Virus record (IMG/VR): IMGVR_UViG_3300023507_000010
Span: 1 to 25,045 of that record
Length of the DNA: 25,045 nt
From: a virus
Strand: one strand, 5' to 3'
The notes under the pieces were generated by a model that made no database searches, was not told where the DNA came from, and saw only the letters and a program-made list of their open reading frames with translations. Position numbers and translations under genes: made by a program. Below, in pieces: positions 216 to 16,849 of this stretch; the stretch's first letter is position 1, and each line of letters begins with the position of its first letter.

Positions 216-1283
216 TCAGACCTGGAGGAGCTCCTGATTCTCCTTGGCGAAGTCGAGGAAGGACTTAGTGTCTGCTACCCCAATGTCCTTGATAAGAGCC
301 TGACGGACGAAAGCAGTCTGGAACTCAATGTGATCGATGCGAGTGATGAACTTCATCAGGTCATCGAAGTTATCCTTGCAGGCGTGCATGGCCAGCATGG
401 TAGTGACTGCATAGAGAGCATCCAGCTTCTTGGGGGTCTTGGCCTTTTCGGGCTTCTTGAGAATCTCTTCAGGATCAGGAAGCTCGTTGAAGATGCGAAT
501 CATGGCTTCGAGCTCTCCTGCAGGGCCTTCTCCGATACAGCCAGCCAGAAGCTGGAAACGAATGCTATCGGGAGCATCGATATGCTTGGAAGCCTGTGCA
601 GTGCTCCTAGGAGTGCAGTTGATGTCCAGCTTGGGATCGAAGCTATCCAGCAGATTCGGACGATACTTGGCAAAGGCAACGACTGCCGGATGCAAGTTGG
701 TCTTGGTGGCCCATTCAACCCAATCTTCAAGGCTGAATTCGAGCGGAAGCTCGTTCATGCGGTCCTTGATGTGCGTGGGCACCTTGTGAGCGTCAGCACG
801 GTCCTTCTGACGGTTACCGGCTGCCACGAAGCGCCATCCTTCGGGGATGACATGCTTACCGATACGATGCTCCAGAAACGCTTCAGAGAAGCCGCCCATG
901 GTGCTCGGAGATGCCTGAGGCAGCTCATCAACGAAGATGATGCCCTGACCGAAGAGAGGGATAAAATCCGGACGAGCGAACATGTATGCCCGCTTGTCTT
1001 CCGTGAAAGTGGGGAGGCCATACAGATCCATAGTAGTAATCATGTTGGCCCGGAAGTCGATAAAGCCGAAACCAGTTTCCATTTCTTCTTTGGAGTGCTC
1101 AGAGTTACCCCGGAAGAGATAGAACTCCTTGCCTGCTTCCTTGGCAAGTTCTTTAGTTGCCTGCAGTACCAGACTGGACTTACCAACGCCAGGGCTGGAA
1201 GTGAGAAACGGAATGATTCCGTGATTCACACAGTGCTTGATGGCAGAGATGGCGGATTTGGGGGTGATTGCAAGAGTGCTCAT
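216..1283 (-). CDS. MoxR-type AAA+ ATPase
   Basis: 355 residues. An AAA+ ATPase of the MoxR/AAA_5 kind is indicated by Walker A SSPGVGKSS (about 29-37), Walker B GIIFVDEL (114-121) and a sensor-1-like AAGN (154-157), followed by a helical lid. MoxR ATPases usually remodel or activate a partner, often a VWA-domain protein. No VWA gene is visible here, although one could lie beyond the window edge. The start ATG overlaps the stop of the upstream array gene (ATGA), so it is the last gene of the leftward early operon and probably translated by coupling. A plausible role is remodelling of a phage or host complex during replication or takeover. The family call is firm and the role is inferred. Confidence 0.85.
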   Translation of the reverse strand: MSTLAITPKSAISAIKHCVNHGIIPFLTSSPGVGKSSLVLQATKELAKEAGKEFYLFRGNSEHSKEEMETGFGFIDFRANMITTMDLYGLPTFTEDKRAYMFARPDFIPLFGQGIIFVDELPQASPSTMGGFSEAFLEHRIGKHVIPEGWRFVAAGNRQKDRADAHKVPTHIKDRMNELPLEFSLEDWVEWATKTNLHPAVVAFAKYRPNLLDSFDPKLDINCTPRSTAQASKHIDAPDSIRFQLLAGCIGEGPAGELEAMIRIFNELPDPEEILKKPEKAKTPKKLDALYAVTTMLAMHACKDNFDDLMKFITRIDHIEFQTAFVRQALIKDIGVADTKSFLDFAKENQELLQV

Positions 1284-1474
1284 TTATTACCTCCTAGTTT
1301 GTTTAACGGTTTGAAACAATTTTCTACTTCTTCATGAAGAAGAACATGCCCATCTAAGAAAAAACAGAGCTCTCTTGGAGCAAGGTTGACTATAGACCCG
1401 ATTGGATATTTAGTGTTAAGTTTCTTATTAATATGCCAACTTGGATCGAGTTCTTTAATTTTAATAGCTTTCAT
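1280..1474 (-). CDS. Array paralogue 13 (MKAI-x-x-K family)
   Basis: 64 residues. Shows the array family pattern: an N-terminal strand MKAIKIKEL, the central KYPIGSIV segment (about 22-29), and a C-terminal EEVENCFKPL. This predicts a small beta-rich, possibly SH3-like barrel (inference from the pattern only). It is the last copy before the MoxR ATPase. Its ATG overlaps the upstream copy by 4 nt and its TGA overlaps the ATPase start by 4 nt. The C-terminus ends NKLGGNK rather than in the DES tail of the central copies, which fits its plain ATGA junction. Function unknown. Confidence 0.75.
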   Translation of the reverse strand: MKAIKIKELDPSWHINKKLNTKYPIGSIVNLAPRELCFFLDGHVLLHEEVENCFKPLNKLGGNK

Positions 1475-1662
1475 TCAAGTAACTTTAATTCCTCTGGATA
1501 AAAAGTCCAACGTCGGTTTCTATAAAAGAATTTATAGAAACGACCGTCTGAACTTATATTTAAATCGAGAACAGAACCTAATTTAAAAGTTCGTTTGTAT
1601 TCTTCGTGCATAGCAGGGTCATCATCCTGTCTGAGAACTAGTTGTACTAGTATCGCTTTCAA
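1471..1662 (-). CDS. Array paralogue 12 (MKAI-x-x-K family)
   Basis: 63 residues. N-terminus MKAILVQLV, central FKLGSVLDL, and C-terminal FYPEELKLLE. The usual Lys7 is Gln here (CAA in place of AAA). Because the upstream gene normally finds its TAA stop across codons 6-7 of the following copy, this change removes that stop and leaves the upstream copy with a longer tail. The stop of this gene is an ATGA overlap with copy 13. No clear Shine-Dalgarno sequence; coupled translation is likely. Function unknown. Confidence 0.7.
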   Translation of the reverse strand: MKAILVQLVLRQDDDPAMHEEYKRTFKLGSVLDLNISSDGRFYKFFYRNRRWTFYPEELKLLE

Positions 1663-1840
1663 TGATTTTCAACTCCTCTGGCCTGAACATCCAAGTATTT
1701 CCGTCTTTATCAATAGTCCGATACATCCCTTCAACTAAGAAGACATCAAGGATTTGACCGATATGGAATCTTTCCAGGTATGAATTGAAATAGAGTTTGC
1801 CTATTTCAGCTTCATTCCATTTGATTAATATGGCTTTCAT
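1622..1840 (-). CDS. Array paralogue 11 with extended tail
   Basis: 72 residues. MKAILIKW start, FHIGQILDV core and RPEELKIIESD near the C-terminus. The last eight residues (TSTTSSQTG region) are an extension read over the start of copy 12, producing a 41-nt overlap in place of the 20-nt overlap typical of the array. The core is recognisably the same family as its neighbours, although the middle segment (GMYRTIDKDGNTW) is divergent. Function unknown. Confidence 0.7.
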   Translation of the reverse strand: MKAILIKWNEAEIGKLYFNSYLERFHIGQILDVFLVEGMYRTIDKDGNTWMFRPEELKIIESDTSTTSSQTG

Positions 1841-2012
1841 TGAGTACTTTGAAAAAGTGTTTCAGAGTGTGTTGGTCAATCAACTGACTAAATTTGTAAT
1901 AGTATTGGTCGCGTATTTTTTCAAATTCTACTATTTGACCTGGTAAAAATTTATAGGATTCTTTTCTATAAAGACGATTTAAAGTAAATGGTTTAACACA
2001 TATCACTTTCAT
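1812..2012 (-). CDS. Array paralogue 10 (divergent)
   Basis: 66 residues. Starts MKVICVKPF, has the central FLPGQIVEF segment and ends KHFFKVLNESHINQME. The NES tail is the array signature, but the reading frame runs three codons past the usual stop, giving a 29-nt overlap with copy 11. Tyr, Phe and Lys are abundant. Function unknown; membership rests on N-terminus, core and junction structure. Confidence 0.7.
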   Translation of the reverse strand: MKVICVKPFTLNRLYRKESYKFLPGQIVEFEKIRDQYYYKFSQLIDQHTLKHFFKVLNESHINQME

Positions 2013-2262
2013 TGATTACAAAACAACTTAATTCGTTATCAAGTATTGGAAACCCGTTTCTATCAGGCCCCTCCCACATAGTATTTTCTAAATGTGGGTA
2101 ATCGTTTTTATTTGGGATAAGTACAGCGTAATTGGCACGAGCATATGGAAGGCCTTCTAATTTAATCAATTCAAAAATAGTAAACAAGGGAAAATAAATA
2201 TTAAAATATTTATTCAGTTCTACCCCTTGTTCTGGTAAGTGTTTAATCAAGATCGCTTTCAT
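1993..2262 (-). CDS. Array paralogue 9 (long form)
   Basis: 89 residues, one of two long copies. MKAILIKHLP start, YFPLFTIFEL core, then an inserted segment ending DNELSCFVINESDMC. It closely parallels copy 8 in the start and the C-terminal half, so the two probably arose from a recent duplication. The stop lies within the first seven codons of copy 10 (20-nt overlap). The glycine of the core P-x-G motif seen in short copies is replaced in both long copies. Function unknown. Confidence 0.75.
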   Translation of the reverse strand: MKAILIKHLPEQGVELNKYFNIYFPLFTIFELIKLEGLPYARANYAVLIPNKNDYPHLENTMWEGPDRNGFPILDNELSCFVINESDMC

Positions 2263-2515
2263 CAGTTACAAAACAGTCCCTCTCATCTTCTTCGATAGGG
2301 AAAGCATTATAGGATTCCCCTTGCATATCAGTACCACCAGCTATACAAGTTTTAAACTTCTGTAAAATTTCTTCTGACTCAACAATCACACCGAAAGCGT
2401 ATCCGTTTGCTACTTCTGTTTCGATTTCAAACTGAGAAAGTAAAGGAAAATACTTATTAAACGTGCGGTTTGCTGCACCTTTATTGGGTAAGTGCTTAAT
2501 CAGAATTGCTTTCAT
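2243..2515 (-). CDS. Array paralogue 8 (long form)
   Basis: 90 residues. MKAILIKHLP start, NKYFPLLSQFEI core, and an acidic C-terminus EEDERDCFVTDESDLD. Sister of copy 9 by length and by the shared MKAILIKHLP, YFPL and CFV..ESD elements. The final DESDLD and stop are encoded by the first 20 nt of copy 9 in another frame. No Shine-Dalgarno sequence is evident upstream of the ATG, so initiation probably depends on ribosomes terminating on copy 7. Function unknown. Confidence 0.75.
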   Translation of the reverse strand: MKAILIKHLPNKGAANRTFNKYFPLLSQFEIETEVANGYAFGVIVESEEILQKFKTCIAGGTDMQGESYNAFPIEEDERDCFVTDESDLD

Positions 2516-2693
2516 CGATTATCCGAAAATATTTTGGGTCAAGTCTGCAGTTTCCTGCTAATACTTTAGCGCTTGGGTAGAAAATTGTAGATCCATCAGT
2601 TTCAAAAATAGAGCCTACAGGATATTTCTGATGAAAGTGTTCTATTTTTGATGGATGAATATAATTAAGAGGTTTAACCAGAATCGCTTTCAT
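2496..2693 (-). CDS. Array paralogue 7 (MKAI-x-x-K family)
   Basis: 65 residues. MKAILVKPLN start, HQKYPVGSIFE core (about 24-34) and C-terminal RLDPKYFRIIDESNSD. Very similar to copy 6, sharing the spacing, the QKYP-hydrophobic-G core and the FRIIDES ending. The last residues and stop are double-coded with the start of copy 8 (20-nt overlap). Predicted small beta-rich protein; function unknown. Confidence 0.78.
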   Translation of the reverse strand: MKAILVKPLNYIHPSKIEHFHQKYPVGSIFETDGSTIFYPSAKVLAGNCRLDPKYFRIIDESNSD

Positions 2694-2874
2694 CGATTAT
2701 TCGAAAAAATCTTGAGTCAAACGCACATAGCCCATTTAGTACAGAATCAGGTTCATAATAAACAAAACCATTGTCACTATTAAAAACAACACCTATAGGA
2801 TATTTTTGATTAAAATGATCTTCATGCTTTTTGATAGGCCAGTTAACTGGTTTAATCAAAATCGCTTTCTTCAT
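2674..2874 (-). CDS. Array paralogue 6 (MKAI-x-x-K family)
   Basis: 66 residues from the ATG at 2874, which gives MKKAILIKPV and aligns with the other copies. A longer frame from 2913 exists but lies inside the preceding gene and adds unrelated residues, so I reject that start. Core FNQKYPIGVVF and C-terminus SRFFRIIDESDSG. The gene overlaps copy 5 by 23 nt at its start and copy 7 by 20 nt at its end. The additional Lys at position 3 explains the 23-nt overlap. Function unknown. Confidence 0.75.
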   Translation of the reverse strand: MKKAILIKPVNWPIKKHEDHFNQKYPIGVVFNSDNGFVYYEPDSVLNGLCAFDSRFFRIIDESDSG

Positions 2875-3043
2875 AGGGAAGTAACCTAAAACAATCCAAT
2901 TCGTCGCCTTCAAGCGTTAGACCATCTACATTAGGATCTTCGGCGCTGATAGTAAGCTCATCTACTGTGACTTCGAAGATATAGCCTGGAAGGTAATTAG
3001 GTAGGTCAGGGTGTTGTTTTTTCAGGATCAACTTCAATTTCAC
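2852..3043 (-). CDS. Array paralogue 5 (divergent)
   Basis: 63 residues. MKLKLILKK start, LPNYLPGYIFEVTVDE core and acidic C-terminus LEGDELDCFRLLPYEESDFD. Divergent in the first ten residues but keeps the P-G-x-I-F-E core, the CFR element and the ESD tail. It starts inside the C-terminal extension of copy 4 (38-nt overlap) and ends inside the first eight codons of copy 6. Function unknown. Confidence 0.7.
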   Translation of the reverse strand: MKLKLILKKQHPDLPNYLPGYIFEVTVDELTISAEDPNVDGLTLEGDELDCFRLLPYEESDFD

Positions 3044-3206
3044 GGAAGCATTCCTCTACTTCTTTTGGGTACAAATACCAGCCATCAAGTGTTTGACCAT
3101 AATGGTTAACACATATTTCAACTATAGAACCTACAGGATACTTTTGATTGATTTCAACATTTACTGAATATTTAATAGGCAACGGTTTAACGAATATAGC
3201 TTTCAT
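3006..3206 (-). CDS. Array paralogue 4 (MKAI-x-x-K family)
   Basis: 66 residues. MKAIFVKPLP start, INQKYPVGSIVEI core and PKEVEECFREIEV at the C-terminus, followed by a short extension DPEKTTP read over the start of copy 5. A good consensus copy. Its own start is used in another frame as the end of the broken copy 3. Function unknown. Confidence 0.78.
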   Translation of the reverse strand: MKAIFVKPLPIKYSVNVEINQKYPVGSIVEICVNHYGQTLDGWYLYPKEVEECFREIEVDPEKTTP

Positions 3207-3431
3207 CTATAATTTTGAAGCATTCGAGTTCATGTCGATAAATAGGGTAATAAGGTTCACTAAGCTCGTTTGCTAATTCAGAATTATTAGTTATTCCTAA
3301 ACCAAGAACAAAAGCTTGATAGTTATCTGCTAAATAGATGCAATCGAATATCGAACCTACAGAAAAAAGCTTATTAAATTCCTTATTTCTTCATCGTCAT
3401 TAGGTAGGGGCTTAATTAGTATCGCTTTCAT
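3187..3431 (-). pseudogene. Frameshifted array paralogue 3
   Basis: The ATG at 3431 opens MKAILIKPLPNDDEE and then leaves frame, reaching TAG after 24 codons. In the minus-one frame the family sequence resumes at once: NKEFNKLFSVGSIFD, then a long middle segment, HELECFKIIDES and a TAA at 3187-3189 inside copy 4. One missing base, most simply an A in the GAAGAAATAAGG stretch near codon 15, explains both halves. The restored protein would be about 81 residues, close to copies 1 and 2 (80 and 77). No canonical slippery heptamer is present. A sequencing error in a short A-run is possible. Confidence 0.75.
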
Positions 3432-3661
3432 TTAAGCACTTTGAAACTTGTTTCAAGTTCTTCTTTAAATAAGGGAAAACAGCCAAATTCACCATAATCC
3501 TTAGCAAAAGCATCGGGGACCTTCAAACCAAATTCAAACATAACATCATCTTGTATTGAAATAACTTCGAATACAGTTCCTATAGAAAAAGTCTCGTTGA
3601 ATTCTTTATTCGACGGTCCTACTGGTGGGGTTGGAAGAGGCTTAACAAATATCGCTTTCAT
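3428..3661 (-). CDS. Array paralogue 2 (MKAI-x-x-K family)
   Basis: 77 residues. MKAIFVKPLP start, SNKEFNETFSIGTVFEV core and C-terminal FKEELETSFKVLK. Close sister of copy 1 through the shared SNKEFNE, FS-L/I-GTVFE and GLKV elements. Both junctions are plain ATGA overlaps of 4 nt, so the DES tail is absent. Function unknown. Confidence 0.78.
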   Translation of the reverse strand: MKAIFVKPLPTPPVGPSNKEFNETFSIGTVFEVISIQDDVMFEFGLKVPDAFAKDYGEFGCFPLFKEELETSFKVLK

Positions 3662-3900
3662 TCAAGTATCTTGAAACAAGTTTTAAATTCGTTGTCGTAT
3701 AAAGGAAATCCACCACACTCTCTATATTCTTCTTGGAAAACACCAGAAACTTTTAAGCCTATTTTAAAATCCTGATTGTCTTTAATAGCGATAGTTTCGA
3801 ATACTGTTCCTAAAGAAAATAATTCATTAAACTCTTTATTCGAACCTACGTAAAATCCATTTTTGTTAGTAGGCAGTGGTTTAATAAAAACAACTCTCAT
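3658..3900 (-). CDS. Array paralogue 1 (first copy after polymerase)
   Basis: 80 residues. MRVVFIKPLP start, SNKEFNELFSLGTVFET core and FKTCFKILE C-terminus. It follows the DNA polymerase directly: the polymerase stop TAA and this ATG share one base (TAATG), so the array is in the polymerase operon and probably coupled to it. Its stop overlaps the start of copy 2 by 4 nt. Function unknown. Confidence 0.78.
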   Translation of the reverse strand: MRVVFIKPLPTNKNGFYVGSNKEFNELFSLGTVFETIAIKDNQDFKIGLKVSGVFQEEYRECGGFPLYDNEFKTCFKILE

Positions 3901-8036: not shown

Positions 8037-10451
8037 TTACGACTTGACTACTTTCAAACCTGCCTGTGTGTCCCCACCAGGCTTGTAGTAAGCCAGTGGC
8101 TGGTTGTTGTCGTCGTGCGCAGCCTGCTCGTAGAAGGTCACGTCCAGGGAGCCGCGCACCATGTCATACCGCAGTGCCATCCCGGTGGGACTCTCGCTGG
8201 GGTTCTTGAGCCTGATACCAACGAGCCGCTGACCGAACTTGTGCCGGTGCTGCCTGATACCGTCTATCTCGAGCAGACGGCGCTTGAGGGAGCGTGACGA
8301 CGGTGTGGACGAGAAACCTTCCACCTCCTGCACGTAAGCCTGCATCGCCTTGGTCAGGTTCATCGAGTAGGTGTACGCCATAGGGTCGAGTACACACTCG
8401 TTCTCGATGAACGACTTGAACAGGTCCTGTCCATCGAGCATGTCGATGGTGGCCTGGTGCGCACGAGCAGAGATGTAGTCGTCCAGAGTGTGGGACGACT
8501 CCTGGTACTGCTTGAGGTACTGCAGAAGCTTGTTCATGATGTAAGGCCGCTCGTTGAGAACCAGCTCGTCGATGTGCGGAATGCGCTCGCTGGAGGGCAG
8601 GGAGTGGTTCACAGGTATCTTGATGAACCTGCGGCGTATGGCCAGCGACGACGACTCGTAGAACGGAGGGTCGATGTTACCCACCATGAACGGCAGGAAG
8701 CCTGCTTTGAACTCGAACTGCTCACGGGAGTACAGAAGACGAGCAGTGATGGTGTCGTTACCAGTAAGCTTCTTGATCTGCTCGATGTCCAGCACCTGAG
8801 CAGCGCCGACCTCCGGGATCGACACGAACCGGGCTGACATGGCCCTGAAGAGGTGCGAGCCCCTGGACCCTTCGGAGGTGTTCCGAGTGAAGGTCTCTGC
8901 AGGCAACGTAGCTCCTGCCGAACCCGAGAAGAGTGAGAGACAGGCGTTGATAAACGCACTCTTCCCTGCTGCCGCTGCTCCGATCAGGAGGATGAACTTC
9001 GACTCGGGGTTAGTGCCCAGCAGGGCATAGCCGAGGAGAGTGTGGATGAAGTCGAAGGTCTCCTTGTCACCTCCCGAGAGGTGCATGACGATCTTGTCCC
9101 AGTACGGAGTAGCCTGGAGAGTGGCGGAGTATTCGTACTCGAAGTAAGTAGTAGGGTAGGTACCTTCGGGAGCTTCGTCAGTGAAGGTATGATCCTGAAG
9201 GTCATAAACCCCGTTCGTGAAGCCGATGTATCTGCGGTATTCAGGGTTGTCGAAATCTACGTAGGGCTGGGAGAACACGTCCGCCAGCGCCTTCATCATG
9301 GGAGAGGAGTCGTTACCGTAACATGCGCGTAAGCGCGCTACATGCTTGGCTTCAGCACCAGCCTTGAGCTCTTCTTGCTCGATGTAAGAGAAGACAGGGA
9401 TAAGCTGCTGGAACAGCAGGTTCTCATGGATGTGTTTCCATACACGATCCTTGTACCACCAGCCGGTAGAAGGAATGTGAATAAGCTGCGGTTGTAGGGT
9501 CTGGATTCGCAGAGAGAATCCAAGCCTGTCTGCTGGAAGTTCGAGAGCTGTTTGGGGGTTATAGGATTGAAGGAGCTGCTGGGTAAAAAGTGTTTTCTGG
9601 GTAGCAGTTTGAGCGGCTGGAGAGGGAACAGGAGCAGGTTGGCTCAACTTGTTCTGAATGTATGTATAAGCCCGTTGAGCCATGGACAGGAGCTCTTCAT
9701 CTTCTTTCTGGCCACGGTACGGAGGCTTGGTGTTGTTTGCCGCAGTAAGAAGGTTGTTGTGAATCAGGGAGACAGCAGTGGTTTCAGGCTCAGCACGGAA
9801 AGCATAGGCCAGTTTGCTGGCCAGCTTGAATAGAAGATCGTTCCTTTCTCCCTCAGTAAGTTCGCCCTGAAGAGCTTTGTAGAGTACATCAGTGGCGGAG
9901 AGGTCGTCCTGAGAGTTCGACGAGCTCCGGAACCATTCAAAGAACTCAGGGGGAGGAACGAGCGGGGTAAGGTCGTTGAGCCAGGTGTAGCCAGGTGTTG
10001 GAGGGATGTTGACGTATCCTCCAGTACCACGAAAGTCCAGGCCAGAAGGTCCATCGATATCGGGTACAGGCATGTTAGCCCGGTTGTTGAGGGTGCCTTG
10101 TTCTGCGGGTACCTGGATGTACAGGTGCATGCCTCCTGATTTGGTGGCACAAGCCAGCGTGGTCTCAGGGGAGAGGTTCCACGTGGAACTAAGCCAGTCA
10201 AGCACCTGCTGGTAAGGAGTGCCGCGCTTGTTGTCCACATCCAGGACACAGATGTTTCCGGATGGCATCCCGGTAAGAAGGCCCTGATGTTCAGGGATCA
10301 GAGGGGCTTCAATGCCTGTTACGGGGTCCTTTACCTTGGGCCAGTCGTCGTCACTGCGTACCCATACCGACTCGTCGGTGCTCCATTTCATCGGCCTCGG
10401 GTTCGTTGGAATGCGAGCTGAGATGGAGAGTAACGACGTCGGTAAATTCAT
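8037..10451 (-). CDS. Primase-polymerase / SF3 helicase (D5-like)
   Basis: 804 residues. The N-terminal prim-pol (AEP) domain shows VLDVDN (69-74), SGGMHLYIQ (105-113) and LDFRGTGGYV (138-147), the expected acidic, GGxH and D-x-R-G motifs. A central D5_N-like region is followed by an SF3 helicase with Walker A GAAAAGKSA (491-499), Walker B RFVSIPEV (541-548), a sensor-like GNID (591-594) and RRR (606-608). It should prime and unwind DNA at the phage fork. Shine-Dalgarno AAGGAG lies 8 nt before the ATG. The start overlaps the end of the ribbon-helix-helix gene by 101 nt. It is more GC-rich than its small neighbours. Confidence 0.93.
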   Translation of the reverse strand: MNLPTSLLSISARIPTNPRPMKWSTDESVWVRSDDDWPKVKDPVTGIEAPLIPEHQGLLTGMPSGNICVLDVDNKRGTPYQQVLDWLSSTWNLSPETTLACATKSGGMHLYIQVPAEQGTLNNRANMPVPDIDGPSGLDFRGTGGYVNIPPTPGYTWLNDLTPLVPPPEFFEWFRSSSNSQDDLSATDVLYKALQGELTEGERNDLLFKLASKLAYAFRAEPETTAVSLIHNNLLTAANNTKPPYRGQKEDEELLSMAQRAYTYIQNKLSQPAPVPSPAAQTATQKTLFTQQLLQSYNPQTALELPADRLGFSLRIQTLQPQLIHIPSTGWWYKDRVWKHIHENLLFQQLIPVFSYIEQEELKAGAEAKHVARLRACYGNDSSPMMKALADVFSQPYVDFDNPEYRRYIGFTNGVYDLQDHTFTDEAPEGTYPTTYFEYEYSATLQATPYWDKIVMHLSGGDKETFDFIHTLLGYALLGTNPESKFILLIGAAAAGKSAFINACLSLFSGSAGATLPAETFTRNTSEGSRGSHLFRAMSARFVSIPEVGAAQVLDIEQIKKLTGNDTITARLLYSREQFEFKAGFLPFMVGNIDPPFYESSSLAIRRRFIKIPVNHSLPSSERIPHIDELVLNERPYIMNKLLQYLKQYQESSHTLDDYISARAHQATIDMLDGQDLFKSFIENECVLDPMAYTYSMNLTKAMQAYVQEVEGFSSTPSSRSLKRRLLEIDGIRQHRHKFGQRLVGIRLKNPSESPTGMALRYDMVRGSLDVTFYEQAAHDDNNQPLAYYKPGGDTQAGLKVVKS

Positions 10452-10572
10452 TCTTGAACTCCTTTTTTATTAGGTATGCGATTTCTCCACGAAGAGAACG
10501 ATCGTGCAGGTCTGCAAGTTTGACAAGCATGGAGTGTAGCTCGTCTGGCAAGCGTAAGCCTAACCCTTTCAT
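10351..10572 (-). CDS. Arc-type ribbon-helix-helix DNA-binding protein
   Basis: 73 residues. The first 43 match an Arc/MetJ-type fold: strand GLGLRLP, helix DELHSMLVKLADLHD, turn, helix LRGEIAYLIKKEF. The remaining 30 residues are read over the start of the primase gene in another frame and may be unstructured. It is the first gene of the leftward replication operon and lies 33 nt from the promoter -10, so autoregulation is likely (inference). Shine-Dalgarno GGAG sits 7 nt before the ATG and can be sequestered in a leader hairpin. Confidence 0.8.
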   Translation of the reverse strand: MKGLGLRLPDELHSMLVKLADLHDRSLRGEIAYLIKKEFKNEFTDVVTLHLSSHSNEPEADEMEHRRVGMGTQ

Positions 10573-13790: not shown

Positions 13791-13876
13791 ATCTAGTTGC
13801 TCTAGAAGCACTAACAACTACTAGCCAGCTTCGCTGGCCTGACAGCGAGCGAAGCGAGCTGGCATCCCGGAGTAAC
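13791..13876 (-). promoter_or_regulatory. Repeated leader element, copy A
   Basis: Shares an ordered series with 14145-14202: ATCTAGTTG, AGCAC, AAC-ACTAC, a hairpin GCCAGC-TTC-GCTGGC (13824-13838) and TCCCGGAGT-AC. Copy A has about 25 extra bases, including AGCGAGCGAAGCGAGCT, which can fold further. It sits directly upstream of the ribosome site of the 13780 gene, so it is part of its leader or promoter. Role unknown. Confidence 0.5.
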
Positions 13877-13928: not shown

Positions 13929-14132
13929 TCAGATAGGTCTAATCTCTCTGCTACGTTCGACTCTTGCCCACTCTTCACTAAGAATGTACTGTTCTTGCGG
14001 ATCGAGTTCAGGCAGAGGCTGCCATTCGTTGCACCATTCATTGGCATTGACAGGCAGCATTTGATCTGCCTGTGGGCAGAAGCCGGGGTTAAGACCCGCA
14101 ATCTTGCAGTTTTTGCAATTAAATTGACTCAT
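13929..14132 (-). CDS. Small Cys-rich, probable metal-binding protein
   Basis: 67 residues from the ATG at 14132 (MSQFNCKNCKIAGLNPGF), preceded by GGAG 7 nt upstream. Cys6, Cys9, Cys19 and Cys34 (CxxC, then FCP, then EWCNEW) could bind zinc or a small cluster. The C-terminal half is acidic and helical. It is the first leftward gene after the central repeat region and has its own terminator. An upstream in-frame ATG at 14165 has no ribosome site. Role unknown; DNA binding or transcription control would be a guess. Confidence 0.7.
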   Translation of the reverse strand: MSQFNCKNCKIAGLNPGFCPQADQMLPVNANEWCNEWQPLPELDPQEQYILSEEWARVERSREIRPI

Positions 14133-14144
14133 CTTTTGTCTCCT

Positions 14145-14202
14145 ATCTAGTTGAACAAGCACCAACCACTACAGGCCAGCGCAGCTGGCGTCCCGGAGTC
14201 AC
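14145..14202 (-). promoter_or_regulatory. Repeated leader element, copy B
   Basis: Second copy of the leader element at 13791-13876, with hairpin GCCAGC-GCA-GCTGGC (14175-14189). It lies just upstream of the ribosome site of the Cys-rich gene. The stem is identical in both copies while the loop differs (GCA here, TTC in copy A), which suggests the stem matters. Confidence 0.5.
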
Positions 14203-14300
14203 CCGTATGGGTCCCCCTTCAAGTTTTCGAAATCCGAAATCCGAACCGGGGTGTATCAAATAGAAGAGGGGGAGGGGTACTTTCACCACCTTACTTATCA
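14203..14300. other. Non-coding flank of the central region
   Basis: No gene. Contains a small hairpin ACCC-GTAT-GGGT and a tandem CGAAATC-CGAAATC-CGAACC (14228-14247). The leftward promoter for the Cys-rich gene should lie in or next to this segment, but I see no convincing -35/-10 pair. Confidence 0.35.
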
Positions 14301-14690
14301 CATTTTTACTAGGAGCACTCCGTACCTATGTATTTAAATACATTTTTACTAGGAGCACTCCGTACCTATGTATTTAAATACATTTTTACTAGGAACACTT
14401 CGTACCTATGTATTTAAATATATTTTTACTAGGAACACTCCGTACCTATGTATTTAAATATATTTTACTAGGAGCACTCCGTACCTATGTATTTAAATAT
14501 ATTTTACTAGGAGCACTCCGTACCTATGTATTTAAATATATTTTTACTAGGAACACTCCGTACCTATGTATTTAAATATATTTTTACTAGGAACACTCCG
14601 TACCTATATATTTAAATATATTTTTACTAGGAACACTCCGTACCTATATATTTAAATATATTTTTACTAGGAACACTCCGTACCTATGTA
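14301..14690. repeat. Ten tandem copies of a 40-bp repeat
   Basis: Units begin at 14301, 14341, 14381, 14421, 14461, 14500, 14539, 14579, 14619 and 14659. Each has ACTAGGA(G/A)CACTCC, then GTACCTAT(G/A) and TATTTAAATA. Units 5 and 6 are 39 bp after loss of one T. The last unit breaks off before the TTTAAATA part. There are no variable spacers, so it is not CRISPR. It lies at the divergent centre, 75 bp upstream of terS. Candidate roles: terminase recognition (pac), replication origin, or an array of regulator-binding or weak promoter sites. Confidence 0.95.
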
Positions 14691-14765
14691 CTCCATAGGT
14701 ACTTACTCTTAACCTCTTATACCTTATACTTGTACTAAATCAGTACTCCCACTAAACTACGCAGT
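14680..14765 (+). promoter_or_regulatory. terS leader with hairpin at the array end
   Basis: GTACCTATG-TACTC-CATAGGTAC (14680-14702) is a perfect 9-bp hairpin formed by the end of the last repeat and the sequence replacing its AT tail. Downstream, TATACT (14725-14730) could serve as a -10 for the rightward late genes, but no good -35 is present. No Shine-Dalgarno sequence precedes the terS ATG. Confidence 0.4.
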
Positions 14766-15227
14766 ATGCTAAGCCTTGCAGAACAACAGTTTGCAAAGAA
14801 CCTGGCTCTAGGCATGCCGCAAACTGCGGCTGCCCGTGCTGCATCTGTCCCTGCTTCTAATGTAAAGGACTTGATGGCGAACCCTGAAATACACCAGGCA
14901 GTAGCCCAGCATAGACAGGAAATCGAAAATCGTGTGCTTGTTAGTAGGAATGACGTATTACAAGGCCTTTTGAGCGCCGTAGAAGATGCGAAATTACAAG
15001 GTGAAGTAATGCCTCAAGTTGCTGCCTGGCGCGAAATCGGGAAGATAATCGGAGCTTACGCCCCTGAAGAGAAGAAAATTACTTATTCTGGTGATGTAAC
15101 AGTCATCCAAAGAAAAATCCGTGAGCTGGCCGATGAAAAGCTTCAGGAATATGCTTTGATTGAAGGAGAAGTTGTTAGTGAAGAACTTCCCGAAGAACCT
15201 ACTGAACTTAAGGAGCAAGCAGGTTGA
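14766..15227 (+). CDS. terS: Terminase small subunit
   Basis: 153 residues. An N-terminal helical DNA-binding region (SLAEQQFAKNLALGMPQTAA, then SVPASNVKDLMANPE) is followed by a helical oligomerisation region and an acidic tail. This layout, the length and the position immediately before terL identify the packaging subunit that recognises phage DNA. The tandem repeats just upstream are its obvious candidate target. The ATG has no visible Shine-Dalgarno sequence, unusual among its neighbours. The stop overlaps the terL TTG start. Confidence 0.8.
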   Translation: MLSLAEQQFAKNLALGMPQTAAARAASVPASNVKDLMANPEIHQAVAQHRQEIENRVLVSRNDVLQGLLSAVEDAKLQGEVMPQVAAWREIGKIIGAYAPEEKKITYSGDVTVIQRKIRELADEKLQEYALIEGEVVSEELPEEPTELKEQAG

Positions 15228-16849
15228 ATTCTTCACTAGCTGCAATAGCTAGAGACGAACTTATTCAGCGCGAATTAGCGCGGAAGTCCCTGATAGCTTT
15301 CGCAGAACGCTTCGTACCCGGATACTCTGCTGGGTGGGCGCATAAGTTCCTGGCTTCCAAGCTTGAACAGGTATATGAGGACGCTAGAGCCGGAAAAGAG
15401 CCTCGTATCATCCTCTGCTACTCTCCCCGTTTTGGTAAGTCCAAAATGGCGTCTCAGCTCTTCCCAGCCTGGGTTTTAGGGCACTGGCCCGAAGCTGAGT
15501 TCATGATAGCTTCTTACTCGTCAGCACTAACCCTGGACTTTTCCAGAAACGTACGGGACATCCTAATGTCCCAGGACTATCAGGTTCTCTTCCCTGAAAC
15601 GCGCATTGACCCAAACGCAAAATCCCTTGAGAACTGGTTCACGACGAAGAACGGTCGTTATTACCCAACCAGCTGGGGCGGCTCGCTTACTGGTAAAGGT
15701 GCGCATTTCCTGATCTGTGACGACCTCGTAAAAGACTCCGAGGTGGCCGACAGTGAGTCGCAACTGGATAAGATCTATGAGTGGTATACCTCGACGGCGT
15801 TGACTCGTCTTGCTCCCAAGAACAACGCTATCATCCACATCATGACCCGTTGGTCGATGCGTGATCCGGTAGGACGCCTGTTGGAGCATCAAATTGAACA
15901 AGAGAAACGCCTCAAGGACGAATACGACCACGCAACAAACCCGGAATTCAAGGAGTTTCTGAAGAAAGAACTCGACGCGCTTGAGCACTGGGAGCTTCTT
16001 TCTTTCCCTGCTCTTGCAGAGGCTGATGAGTACGTTACTCCTGATTTACGCCTCACCTATACTCCTGTACCAGGCTCTATAAAGGTACGTTCCAAAGGAC
16101 AGGCTCTACACCCAGAAAGGTTCGATGAGGCTACTTTGGCGCGTATCAAAGCGTCTCTACCCCCGCGACAGTGGAACGCTCTGTATCAGCAGAATCCAGT
16201 GCCTGAGGAAGGCAGTTTCTTCAAGAAGTCTGATTTGCGCCATCAACAAGTTGTACGGCACCCGGAGTTTCCGGTAATTCAGACCTGGGATTTCGCTATT
16301 GGTACAAAACAGCAGAACGACTGGACAGTAGGTATTACCGGATTTCTTGATTACAACGGCATCCTGCATGTAATCGACCTTGTACGAATCAAGGCAGGCA
16401 CCTATGAGATTGTCCAGGCCATGGCTGACCAGATACAGAAACACAGTCCCTCACTGGTTGGTATGGAGAAAGGTCATATCTCTCAAGCCATTTTCCCCGT
16501 TCTTGAGAAGGAACTCGTCAGGCGCAGGCTGTACCCTTCTATAAACGCTGAGATAACACCGCTTACCGACAAGGTTCTTCGTGCTCGCCCCCTACAAGGT
16601 ATGATGCAGCGCGGCATGATCAGCATCGATCCTTCCCAATCATGGTATGAAACATTGAAAACCGAGCTGCTTCAGTTTCCTCACGGTATGCATGATGACA
16701 TAGTAGACGCCCTGGCTTGGTTGGCTAAACTTGCTATGGATACTCCGGTTCCAAGGAAACCTAAACAATATAAACGTAAATCGTGGCGGGACAAGTTAAG
16801 ATCACATATGGTAGCATCCACCAAAGGTGCTGGGCATTTGAGTGCCTAG
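15224..16849 (+). CDS. terL: Terminase large subunit
   Basis: 541 residues. ATPase domain: Walker A variant SPRFGKS (67-73), Walker B FLICDDL (162-168), coupling motif MTRW (207-210). Nuclease domain: TWDFAIG (354-360, D356), D366, GMEKG (413-417) and MHDDIVDALAW (489-499), the expected acidic RNase H-like residues. It drives DNA packaging and cuts concatemers. The start is TTG at 15224, with AAGGAG 8 nt upstream and overlapping the terS stop as TTGA. Length and motifs are complete. Confidence 0.95.
   Translation: MNSSLAAIARDELIQRELARKSLIAFAERFVPGYSAGWAHKFLASKLEQVYEDARAGKEPRIILCYSPRFGKSKMASQLFPAWVLGHWPEAEFMIASYSSALTLDFSRNVRDILMSQDYQVLFPETRIDPNAKSLENWFTTKNGRYYPTSWGGSLTGKGAHFLICDDLVKDSEVADSESQLDKIYEWYTSTALTRLAPKNNAIIHIMTRWSMRDPVGRLLEHQIEQEKRLKDEYDHATNPEFKEFLKKELDALEHWELLSFPALAEADEYVTPDLRLTYTPVPGSIKVRSKGQALHPERFDEATLARIKASLPPRQWNALYQQNPVPEEGSFFKKSDLRHQQVVRHPEFPVIQTWDFAIGTKQQNDWTVGITGFLDYNGILHVIDLVRIKAGTYEIVQAMADQIQKHSPSLVGMEKGHISQAIFPVLEKELVRRRLYPSINAEITPLTDKVLRARPLQGMMQRGMISIDPSQSWYETLKTELLQFPHGMHDDIVDALAWLAKLAMDTPVPRKPKQYKRKSWRDKLRSHMVASTKGAGHLSA

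What the first reader, a model, noticed from the sequence alone, without database searches (positions are those of the whole stretch)
14301..14690. Ten 40-bp tandem repeats at the divergent centre next to terS
Unit length close to 40 bp (about four helical turns) puts all copies on one DNA face, which suits cooperative protein binding. Each unit has a GGA(G/A)CACTCC core, GTACCTAT and an AT-rich palindrome. The location between early and late units and before terS suggests a packaging (pac), origin or master regulatory site. Each unit also holds a weak promoter-like TTTACT-16-TAT(G/A)TA, so a promoter array is possible.
Basis: partly seen in the sequence, partly recalled or inferred. Interest (0 to 1): 0.72.

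Follow-up and report, generated by a model that had tools for sequence, protein, structure and literature searches.

The report
Repeat array at a phage packaging-start site
Ten near-identical 40-letter DNA repeats in front of the gene for a virus's DNA-packaging protein sit at a conserved landmark that many related bacterial viruses share, sometimes with other, unrelated repeats, so this is most likely the place where the virus's packaging machine first grips its own DNA.

Summary
The array is real: ten units at 14302-14690, seven 40-bp and two 39-bp steps, identical in a second contig, and the unit occurs nowhere else in the window. Two details fail: the copies do not lie on one DNA face (39-40 bp is 3.7-3.8 turns), and promoter-like sites are no commoner than chance. 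The main result lies beside the array. About 25 bp to its left is a diverged copy of an apparently undescribed single-copy element, consensus CCGAATCCGAAGTGGGG-N~20-GGGGAGGGG, found in 80 related phage loci. The small terminase gene follows within 3 kb in 75 of 80. In relatives without arrays, helically phased A-tracts (curved DNA) start about 50 bp after the element. The array occupies exactly that slot, and six relatives carry unrelated tandem arrays there. The element follows terS, not the window's replication primase, and break-points of near-complete contigs cluster around it. Best explanation (0.5): a pac-like packaging-initiation site, as in SPP1/SF6, where TerS selects bent DNA and repeats differ between related phages; the array would be a lineage-specific expansion of the bent-DNA module. 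Rivals: replication origin, transcription switch, neutral slippage. TerS binding, DNA termini and transcription were not testable.

The parts
14302..14690 (.). Tandem array, ten 39-40-bp units, consensus TTTTTACTAGGAACACTCCGTACCTATGTATTTAAATATA; 29% G+C in a 48% G+C window
14680..14702 (.). Inverted repeat GTACCTATG-TACTC-CATAGGTAC that closes the array (the only inverted copy of GTACCTAT)
14228..14253 (+). Diverged copy of the conserved element core: CGAAATCCGAAATCCGAACCGGGGTG (group consensus CCGAATCCGAAGTGGGGTG)
   Evidence: the window copy is weaker than most (repeat spacing 7 instead of 6)
14266..14277 (+). G-rich second block of the element, GAGGGGGAGGGG
14703..14765 (+). Leader between array and terS; probable place of the terS promoter (TATACT at about 14728 is a -10 candidate; the relative L009 has TTGAAA-17-TAGAAT in the same place)
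   Evidence: inference
14766..15227 (+). terS, small terminase, 153 aa, N-terminal HTH
   Evidence: PHROG 51 E 1e-10; PF03592 22.5 bits, below its 26.1 cut-off; AlphaFold2 model with SPP1-like TerS as first Foldseek match, E 0.18
15224..16849 (+). terL, large terminase
   Evidence: PF03237, PHROG 38
13929..14132 (-). First gene of the leftward unit (small protein, no family)

Best explanation
The array is part of a packaging-initiation (pac-like) site. SHOWN: a conserved single-copy DNA element (CCGAATCCGAAGTGGGG ... GGGGAGGGG) lies upstream of terS across a wide phage group. Curved A-tract DNA follows it at a fixed distance. In this phage that slot holds ten 40-bp AT-rich units, and in six relatives it holds other, unrelated tandem arrays. 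INFERRED: a TerS ring binds the AT-rich repeated or curved DNA through its HTH domains, largely by DNA shape, which explains why position is conserved and repeat sequence is not. TerS positions TerL to make the first cut at or near the conserved element, and packaging then runs rightward. By analogy with SPP1, TerS bound here would also repress its own promoter. The ten copies would enlarge the landing strip for TerS.
For: Element found by DNA pattern alone is followed by terS: 24/24, 75/80 pooled with 3 of the 5 exceptions lacking sequence; one copy per record in 42/42. Protein-selected terS loci carry it in 21/51 against 14/782 control windows. G+C minimum about 50 bp after the element; tandem arrays in 8/80 centres against 2/72, 0/75 and 11/1600 in controls; 7 of 8 arrays start at +41 to +66. 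Phased A-tracts, period 10-11 bp, in 71 array-free relatives. Second half-site on the terS side in 13/78, 0.18 expected. The element does not follow the window's primase (0 of 15 records) and persists in two records without the DNA polymerase homologue. Break-points of contigs of 55 kb or more: 8/13 within 5 kb of the element, 1.9 expected; both ends of a 63.8-kb record lie in the element. TerS fold: nearest match SPP1-like TerS. Precedent: SPP1/SF6 pac (PMC4737164; PMC6316719); HK97 TerS reads an A-tract by shape (PMC11331095). The large terminase of the KPP25 group was grouped with headful packagers (PMC13119210).
Against: No binding, cutting or terminus data. In KPP25-type phages three genes lie between element and terS. 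Most relatives have no array, so the array itself cannot be essential to the site. The window's element is diverged and it lacks the second half-site. Contig break-points may reflect poor assembly of G-rich DNA; the 5-kb limit was chosen after the fact and the Rayleigh p is only 0.04. Foldseek E-values for TerS are weak. Curvature of the 40-bp array itself was not computed, and its step is not a whole number of turns.
Confidence: 0.5

Rival explanations
1. Replication origin: the element is an initiator-binding site, the AT-rich slot is the DNA-unwinding element, and the array is a multiplied unwinding or iteron region at the divergent centre.
For: AT-rich slot next to a conserved site, direct repeats, divergent centre; SPP1 origins are direct repeats plus an AT-rich unwinding element (PMC6316719). 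A family A polymerase relative is present in most element-bearing records.
Against: The element follows terS; the window's own primase-helicase is not shared with any element-bearing record tested and the polymerase relative is missing from two. Another initiator, or a host one, is possible.
Confidence: 0.2
2. Transcription switch: the repeats are an operator array, or promoters for a phage-encoded or phage-modified polymerase, that sets early leftward against late rightward transcription.
For: Divergent position; an inverted operator-like copy at 14680-14702; an Arc-like ribbon-helix-helix protein is encoded at 10351-10572; TTTACT-16-TAT(G/A)TA in each unit.
Against: Sigma-70-like sites at chance level; no further copy of the unit in the window; repeat sequence not shared even with the closest relatives. 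SPP1 TerS both packages and represses, so this need not exclude the favoured model.
Confidence: 0.15
3. Neutral slippage: AT-rich intergenic DNA has expanded by replication slippage and the array has no function of its own.
For: Most relatives, including the closest, have no array. Unit variants form runs along the array, as slippage or unequal crossing-over produces.
Against: Arrays concentrate at +41 to +66 after the element and are rare in the flanks (2/72). The slot keeps helically phased A-tracts in array-free relatives, so it is unlikely to be without function.
Confidence: 0.12

Closest known systems
pac site of Bacillus phages SPP1 and SF6 (recognised by TerS gp1/G1P)
   Same: Lies at the terS promoters and gene start; contains direct repeats that differ between related phages; intrinsically bent DNA; similar, weakly, TerS type (PMC4737164, PMC6316719)
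   Different: Here a 17-bp core plus G-rich block is conserved across a very diverse group, up to ten long tandem units are present, and the site lies at a divergent centre. Cut site and TerS binding unknown.
HK97 / lambda cos with TerS sites
   Same: Order cut site - TerS site(s) - terS - terL; in HK97 TerS reads a G and an adjacent A-tract by shape (PMC11331095). The lambda order is from my own knowledge.
   Different: No sign of a fixed genome end: large contigs run through the element, and relatives are reported as circular assemblies (PMC4859162).
Phage origins of the SPP1 oriL/oriR kind
   Different: The element is tied to terS and not to the window's primase-helicase

Membership tests
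SPP1/SF6-type pac site | Located at the promoter/5' end of terS | tested here: met
   Array ends 75 bp before terS; element to terS mostly 110-300 bp in relatives; three genes intervene in KPP25
SPP1/SF6-type pac site | Contains direct repeats that need not be conserved between relatives | tested here: met
   Unrelated arrays in the same slot
SPP1/SF6-type pac site | Intrinsically bent DNA | tested here: inconclusive
   A-tract phasing in 71 array-free relatives; curvature of the window's array not computed or measured
SPP1/SF6-type pac site | SPP1-type TerS | tested here: inconclusive
   PF03592 below cut-off; Foldseek first match 3zqq, E 0.18, and SF6 DNA-binding domain 4zc3, probability 0.85
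SPP1/SF6-type pac site | TerS binds it and TerL cuts within it; headful packaging series starts there | not testable with these tools
   Only indirect: contig break-points cluster near the element
cos site | Fixed genome ends at one position | tested here: inconclusive
   Several contigs of 55 kb or more run through the element; break-points scatter over kilobases, which does not look like one fixed end, but metagenome contigs can be built from concatemers
Iteron/DUE replication origin | Site found together with its initiator gene | tested here: not met
   Prim-Pol primase present only in the window, the candidate tested; an unknown initiator is not excluded
sigma-70 promoter array | More promoter-like sites than chance | tested here: not met
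   2 found, 2.7 expected; a phage-specific RNA polymerase is not covered by this test

The most novel reading that the evidence does not exclude
A previously undescribed, deeply conserved packaging-initiation element of a large group of environmental phages (including Kochitakasuvirus KPP25), built as a fixed sequence core plus a curved-DNA slot that has repeatedly and independently turned into satellite-like tandem arrays, so that TerS would recognise DNA shape and copy number and not repeat sequence.
Probability: 0.4. Interest if true: 0.75.

Novelty: new variant of a known kind. Interest (0 to 1): 0.6.

Why it matters
How a small terminase picks out its own genome is still debated (base sequence, or the shape of bent DNA). 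A phage group in which the neighbouring element is conserved while the terS-side DNA is rebuilt again and again as unrelated repeats is a natural experiment on that question. It also gives a DNA signature that may mark the packaging start in phages known only from metagenomes.

Tried and rejected
Search for the unit elsewhere: an exact 25-mer pattern in viral contigs gave only the near-identical contig; distant blastn against phage records gave none; a PWM scan of the window gave nothing convincing; TerS as a single query found only the same virus. Coding: 40 bp is not a multiple of 3 and the 55-aa ORF across the array is mechanical. RNA: no Rfam match; RNAalifold finds no conserved structure of the element on either strand, although single sequences fold well, so an RNA reading was dropped. 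Promoter array: chance level. One-face cooperative binding: not compatible with 39-40 bp spacing. cos with one fixed end: large contigs run through the element and break-points scatter. GC skew was not used to argue for an origin, because divergent transcription gives the same pattern. Literature: no held paper contains the element; phrase searches for repeats near terS gave little; papers on KPP25-type phages report no mapped termini. Foldseek for TerS gave weak E-values and is used only as support.

Full report
OBSERVATION. The array is at 14302-14690: ten units, seven steps of 40 bp and two of 39 bp, 97% alike, score 701; shuffled versions of the same centre never exceed 49. A second contig of the same virus (3 differences in 13.7 kb) has the identical array; both may be short-read assemblies, so the true copy number is not certain. 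The window is the whole of a linear 25,045-bp virus record. The array lies between a leftward unit (replication genes) and a rightward unit (terS 14766, terL, P22-type portal, capsid). The last unit merges into an inverted repeat with 9-bp arms at 14680-14702. The unit is found nowhere else in the window. At 10.5 bp per turn the copies rotate around the helix. Promoter-like sites are at chance level.

RELATIVES. Exact-unit and blastn searches find only the same virus. Protein searches with TerL, portal and capsid gave relatives from 54% TerL identity (L009, L010) outward, including Pseudomonas phage KPP25 and Aeromonas phage phiA008. L009 and L010 keep the gene order but have no array.

THE CONSERVED ELEMENT. 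Reading these centres side by side showed a shared element between the leftward genes and terS: CCGAATCCGAAGTGGGG, then about 20 bp, then a GGGGAGGGG block. The window holds a diverged copy at 14228-14277, about 25 bp before the array. The core is nearly invariant in 78 aligned loci, but most of those were selected by exact match to it. In loci selected by protein alone it was found upstream of terS in 21 of 51, against 14 of 782 control windows, and inspection shows two more with altered spacing (L070, L089). Scans of 2.9 million viral contigs by DNA pattern gave 24 and 69 hits. Pooled with the protein-found loci these make 80 unique loci, 75 of which have terS within 3 kb downstream; three of the five exceptions have under 300 bp of sequence there. 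All 42 newly scanned records have exactly one copy. No conserved RNA structure was found on either strand, no Rfam family matches the window's region, and no held paper contains the sequence.

THE SLOT. After the element, mean G+C falls from 0.66 to 0.29, lowest about 50 bp on. In 71 array-free relatives the slot has A-tracts whose autocorrelation peaks at 10-11 bp, dips at 19 and rises again near 22, which indicates curved DNA (the absolute z-scores are inflated by local AT-richness, and the shape of the curve is the evidence). Tandem repeats occur in this centre in 8 of 80 loci, against 2 of 72 left-flank regions, 0 of 75 coding regions and 11 of 1600 shuffles. Seven of the eight start at +41 to +66: window 40 bp x9.8, L296 24 bp x8.2, L255 (= L159) 23 bp x5.5, L239 46 bp x2.7, L065 15/30 bp, L263 15 bp x3, L291 23 bp x2. 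The eighth, L144, has 12 bp x4.5 at +100. The units are unrelated, though most contain A/T tracts. So position is conserved and sequence is not: the array has replaced or expanded a curved-DNA slot. In 13 of 78 loci a second half-site, A(A/T)CCGAA...CCCC (0.18 expected), closes the slot on the terS side; the window lacks it.

WHICH PROCESS. The genes right of the element are conserved (TerL in 33 of 37 genomes, TerS in 32), those to the left far less. The window's Prim-Pol primase-helicase is missing from all 15 element-bearing records tested, with the window itself as positive control, and no DnaB was found. The DNA polymerase relative is missing from two element-bearing records. The element therefore follows terS and not the replication enzymes tested. 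Break-points of 13 contigs of at least 55 kb cluster near the element: 8 within 5 kb, 1.9 expected, binomial p 1.6e-4, Rayleigh p 0.04 (from positions). In G009 both contig ends lie in the element. This fits a packaging start, but assembly trouble in G-rich DNA could do the same, and the 5-kb limit was chosen after the fact.

MECHANISM. The TerS is a small HTH protein whose best fold match, weakly, is an SPP1-like TerS. For SPP1 and SF6, published work shows that pac spans the terS promoters and gene start and contains direct repeats, that SPP1's boxA repeats are absent from SF6 although TerS is interchangeable, and that TerS appears to select bent DNA with a ring of weak binders (PMC4737164; PMC6316719). 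HK97 TerS reads a G and an adjacent A-tract by shape (PMC11331095). The same logic explains a conserved core beside a slot of curved DNA that may be filled by different repeats. I therefore favour a pac-like site at 0.5: the architecture, linkage and recurrence are shown; TerS binding, the cut and self-repression are inferred. An origin (0.2), a transcription switch (0.15) and neutral slippage (0.12) remain.

NOVELTY. What it works like: SPP1/SF6 pac. Membership: position and repeats are met; bending and TerS type are inconclusive; cutting and binding were not testable, so it is not filed as a member. The element and the recurrent arrays appear undescribed in the literature that could be searched.

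Noticed in passing
L065, L073, L168, L229, L240, L244, L251, L271, L276, L279, L280, L286, L291; 60-175 bp after the element: A second half-site A(A/T)CCGAA-N0-4-CCCC on the terS side of the AT-rich slot, 13 of 78 loci against 0.18 expected; it may pair with the main element as the two flanks of one site.
   Followed up: partly
L024:7507-7607, L026:7498-7592, L029, L031, L044, L045, L047: Distant TerL relatives carry tandem 20-27-bp palindromes (e.g. TAGAAATGATAAATGATTTCTA) after the probable terS and before a small ORF that resembles a LexA DNA-binding domain, itself just before terL; looks like an operator array of another kind.
   Followed up: no
window 1280-3900, minus strand: About a dozen adjacent small ORFs, most beginning MKAI(L/F)(I/V)K or similar, that look like one tandemly duplicated gene family.
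   Followed up: no
window 13791-13876 and 14145-14202: Two leftward gene starts share leader repeats (ATCTAGTTG..., AGCTGGC(A/G)TCCCGGAGT), possibly a duplicated leader or regulatory unit.
   Followed up: no
window 10351-10572, minus strand: A 73-aa Arc-like ribbon-helix-helix protein overlapping the start of the primase gene; weak matches to Arc and to a partition family.
   Followed up: partly
L206 (G009 contig ends) and L223:1-60: Both ends of a 63,764-bp contig lie inside the conserved element and overlap with small sequence differences.
   Followed up: partly
L076:2180-2251: A perfect 28-bp repeat, 2.6 copies (ATGGCCCGCTAGGGCCAGGTTTTGACGT), about 1.9 kb upstream of the portal gene, apparently at the end of a gene.
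   Followed up: no
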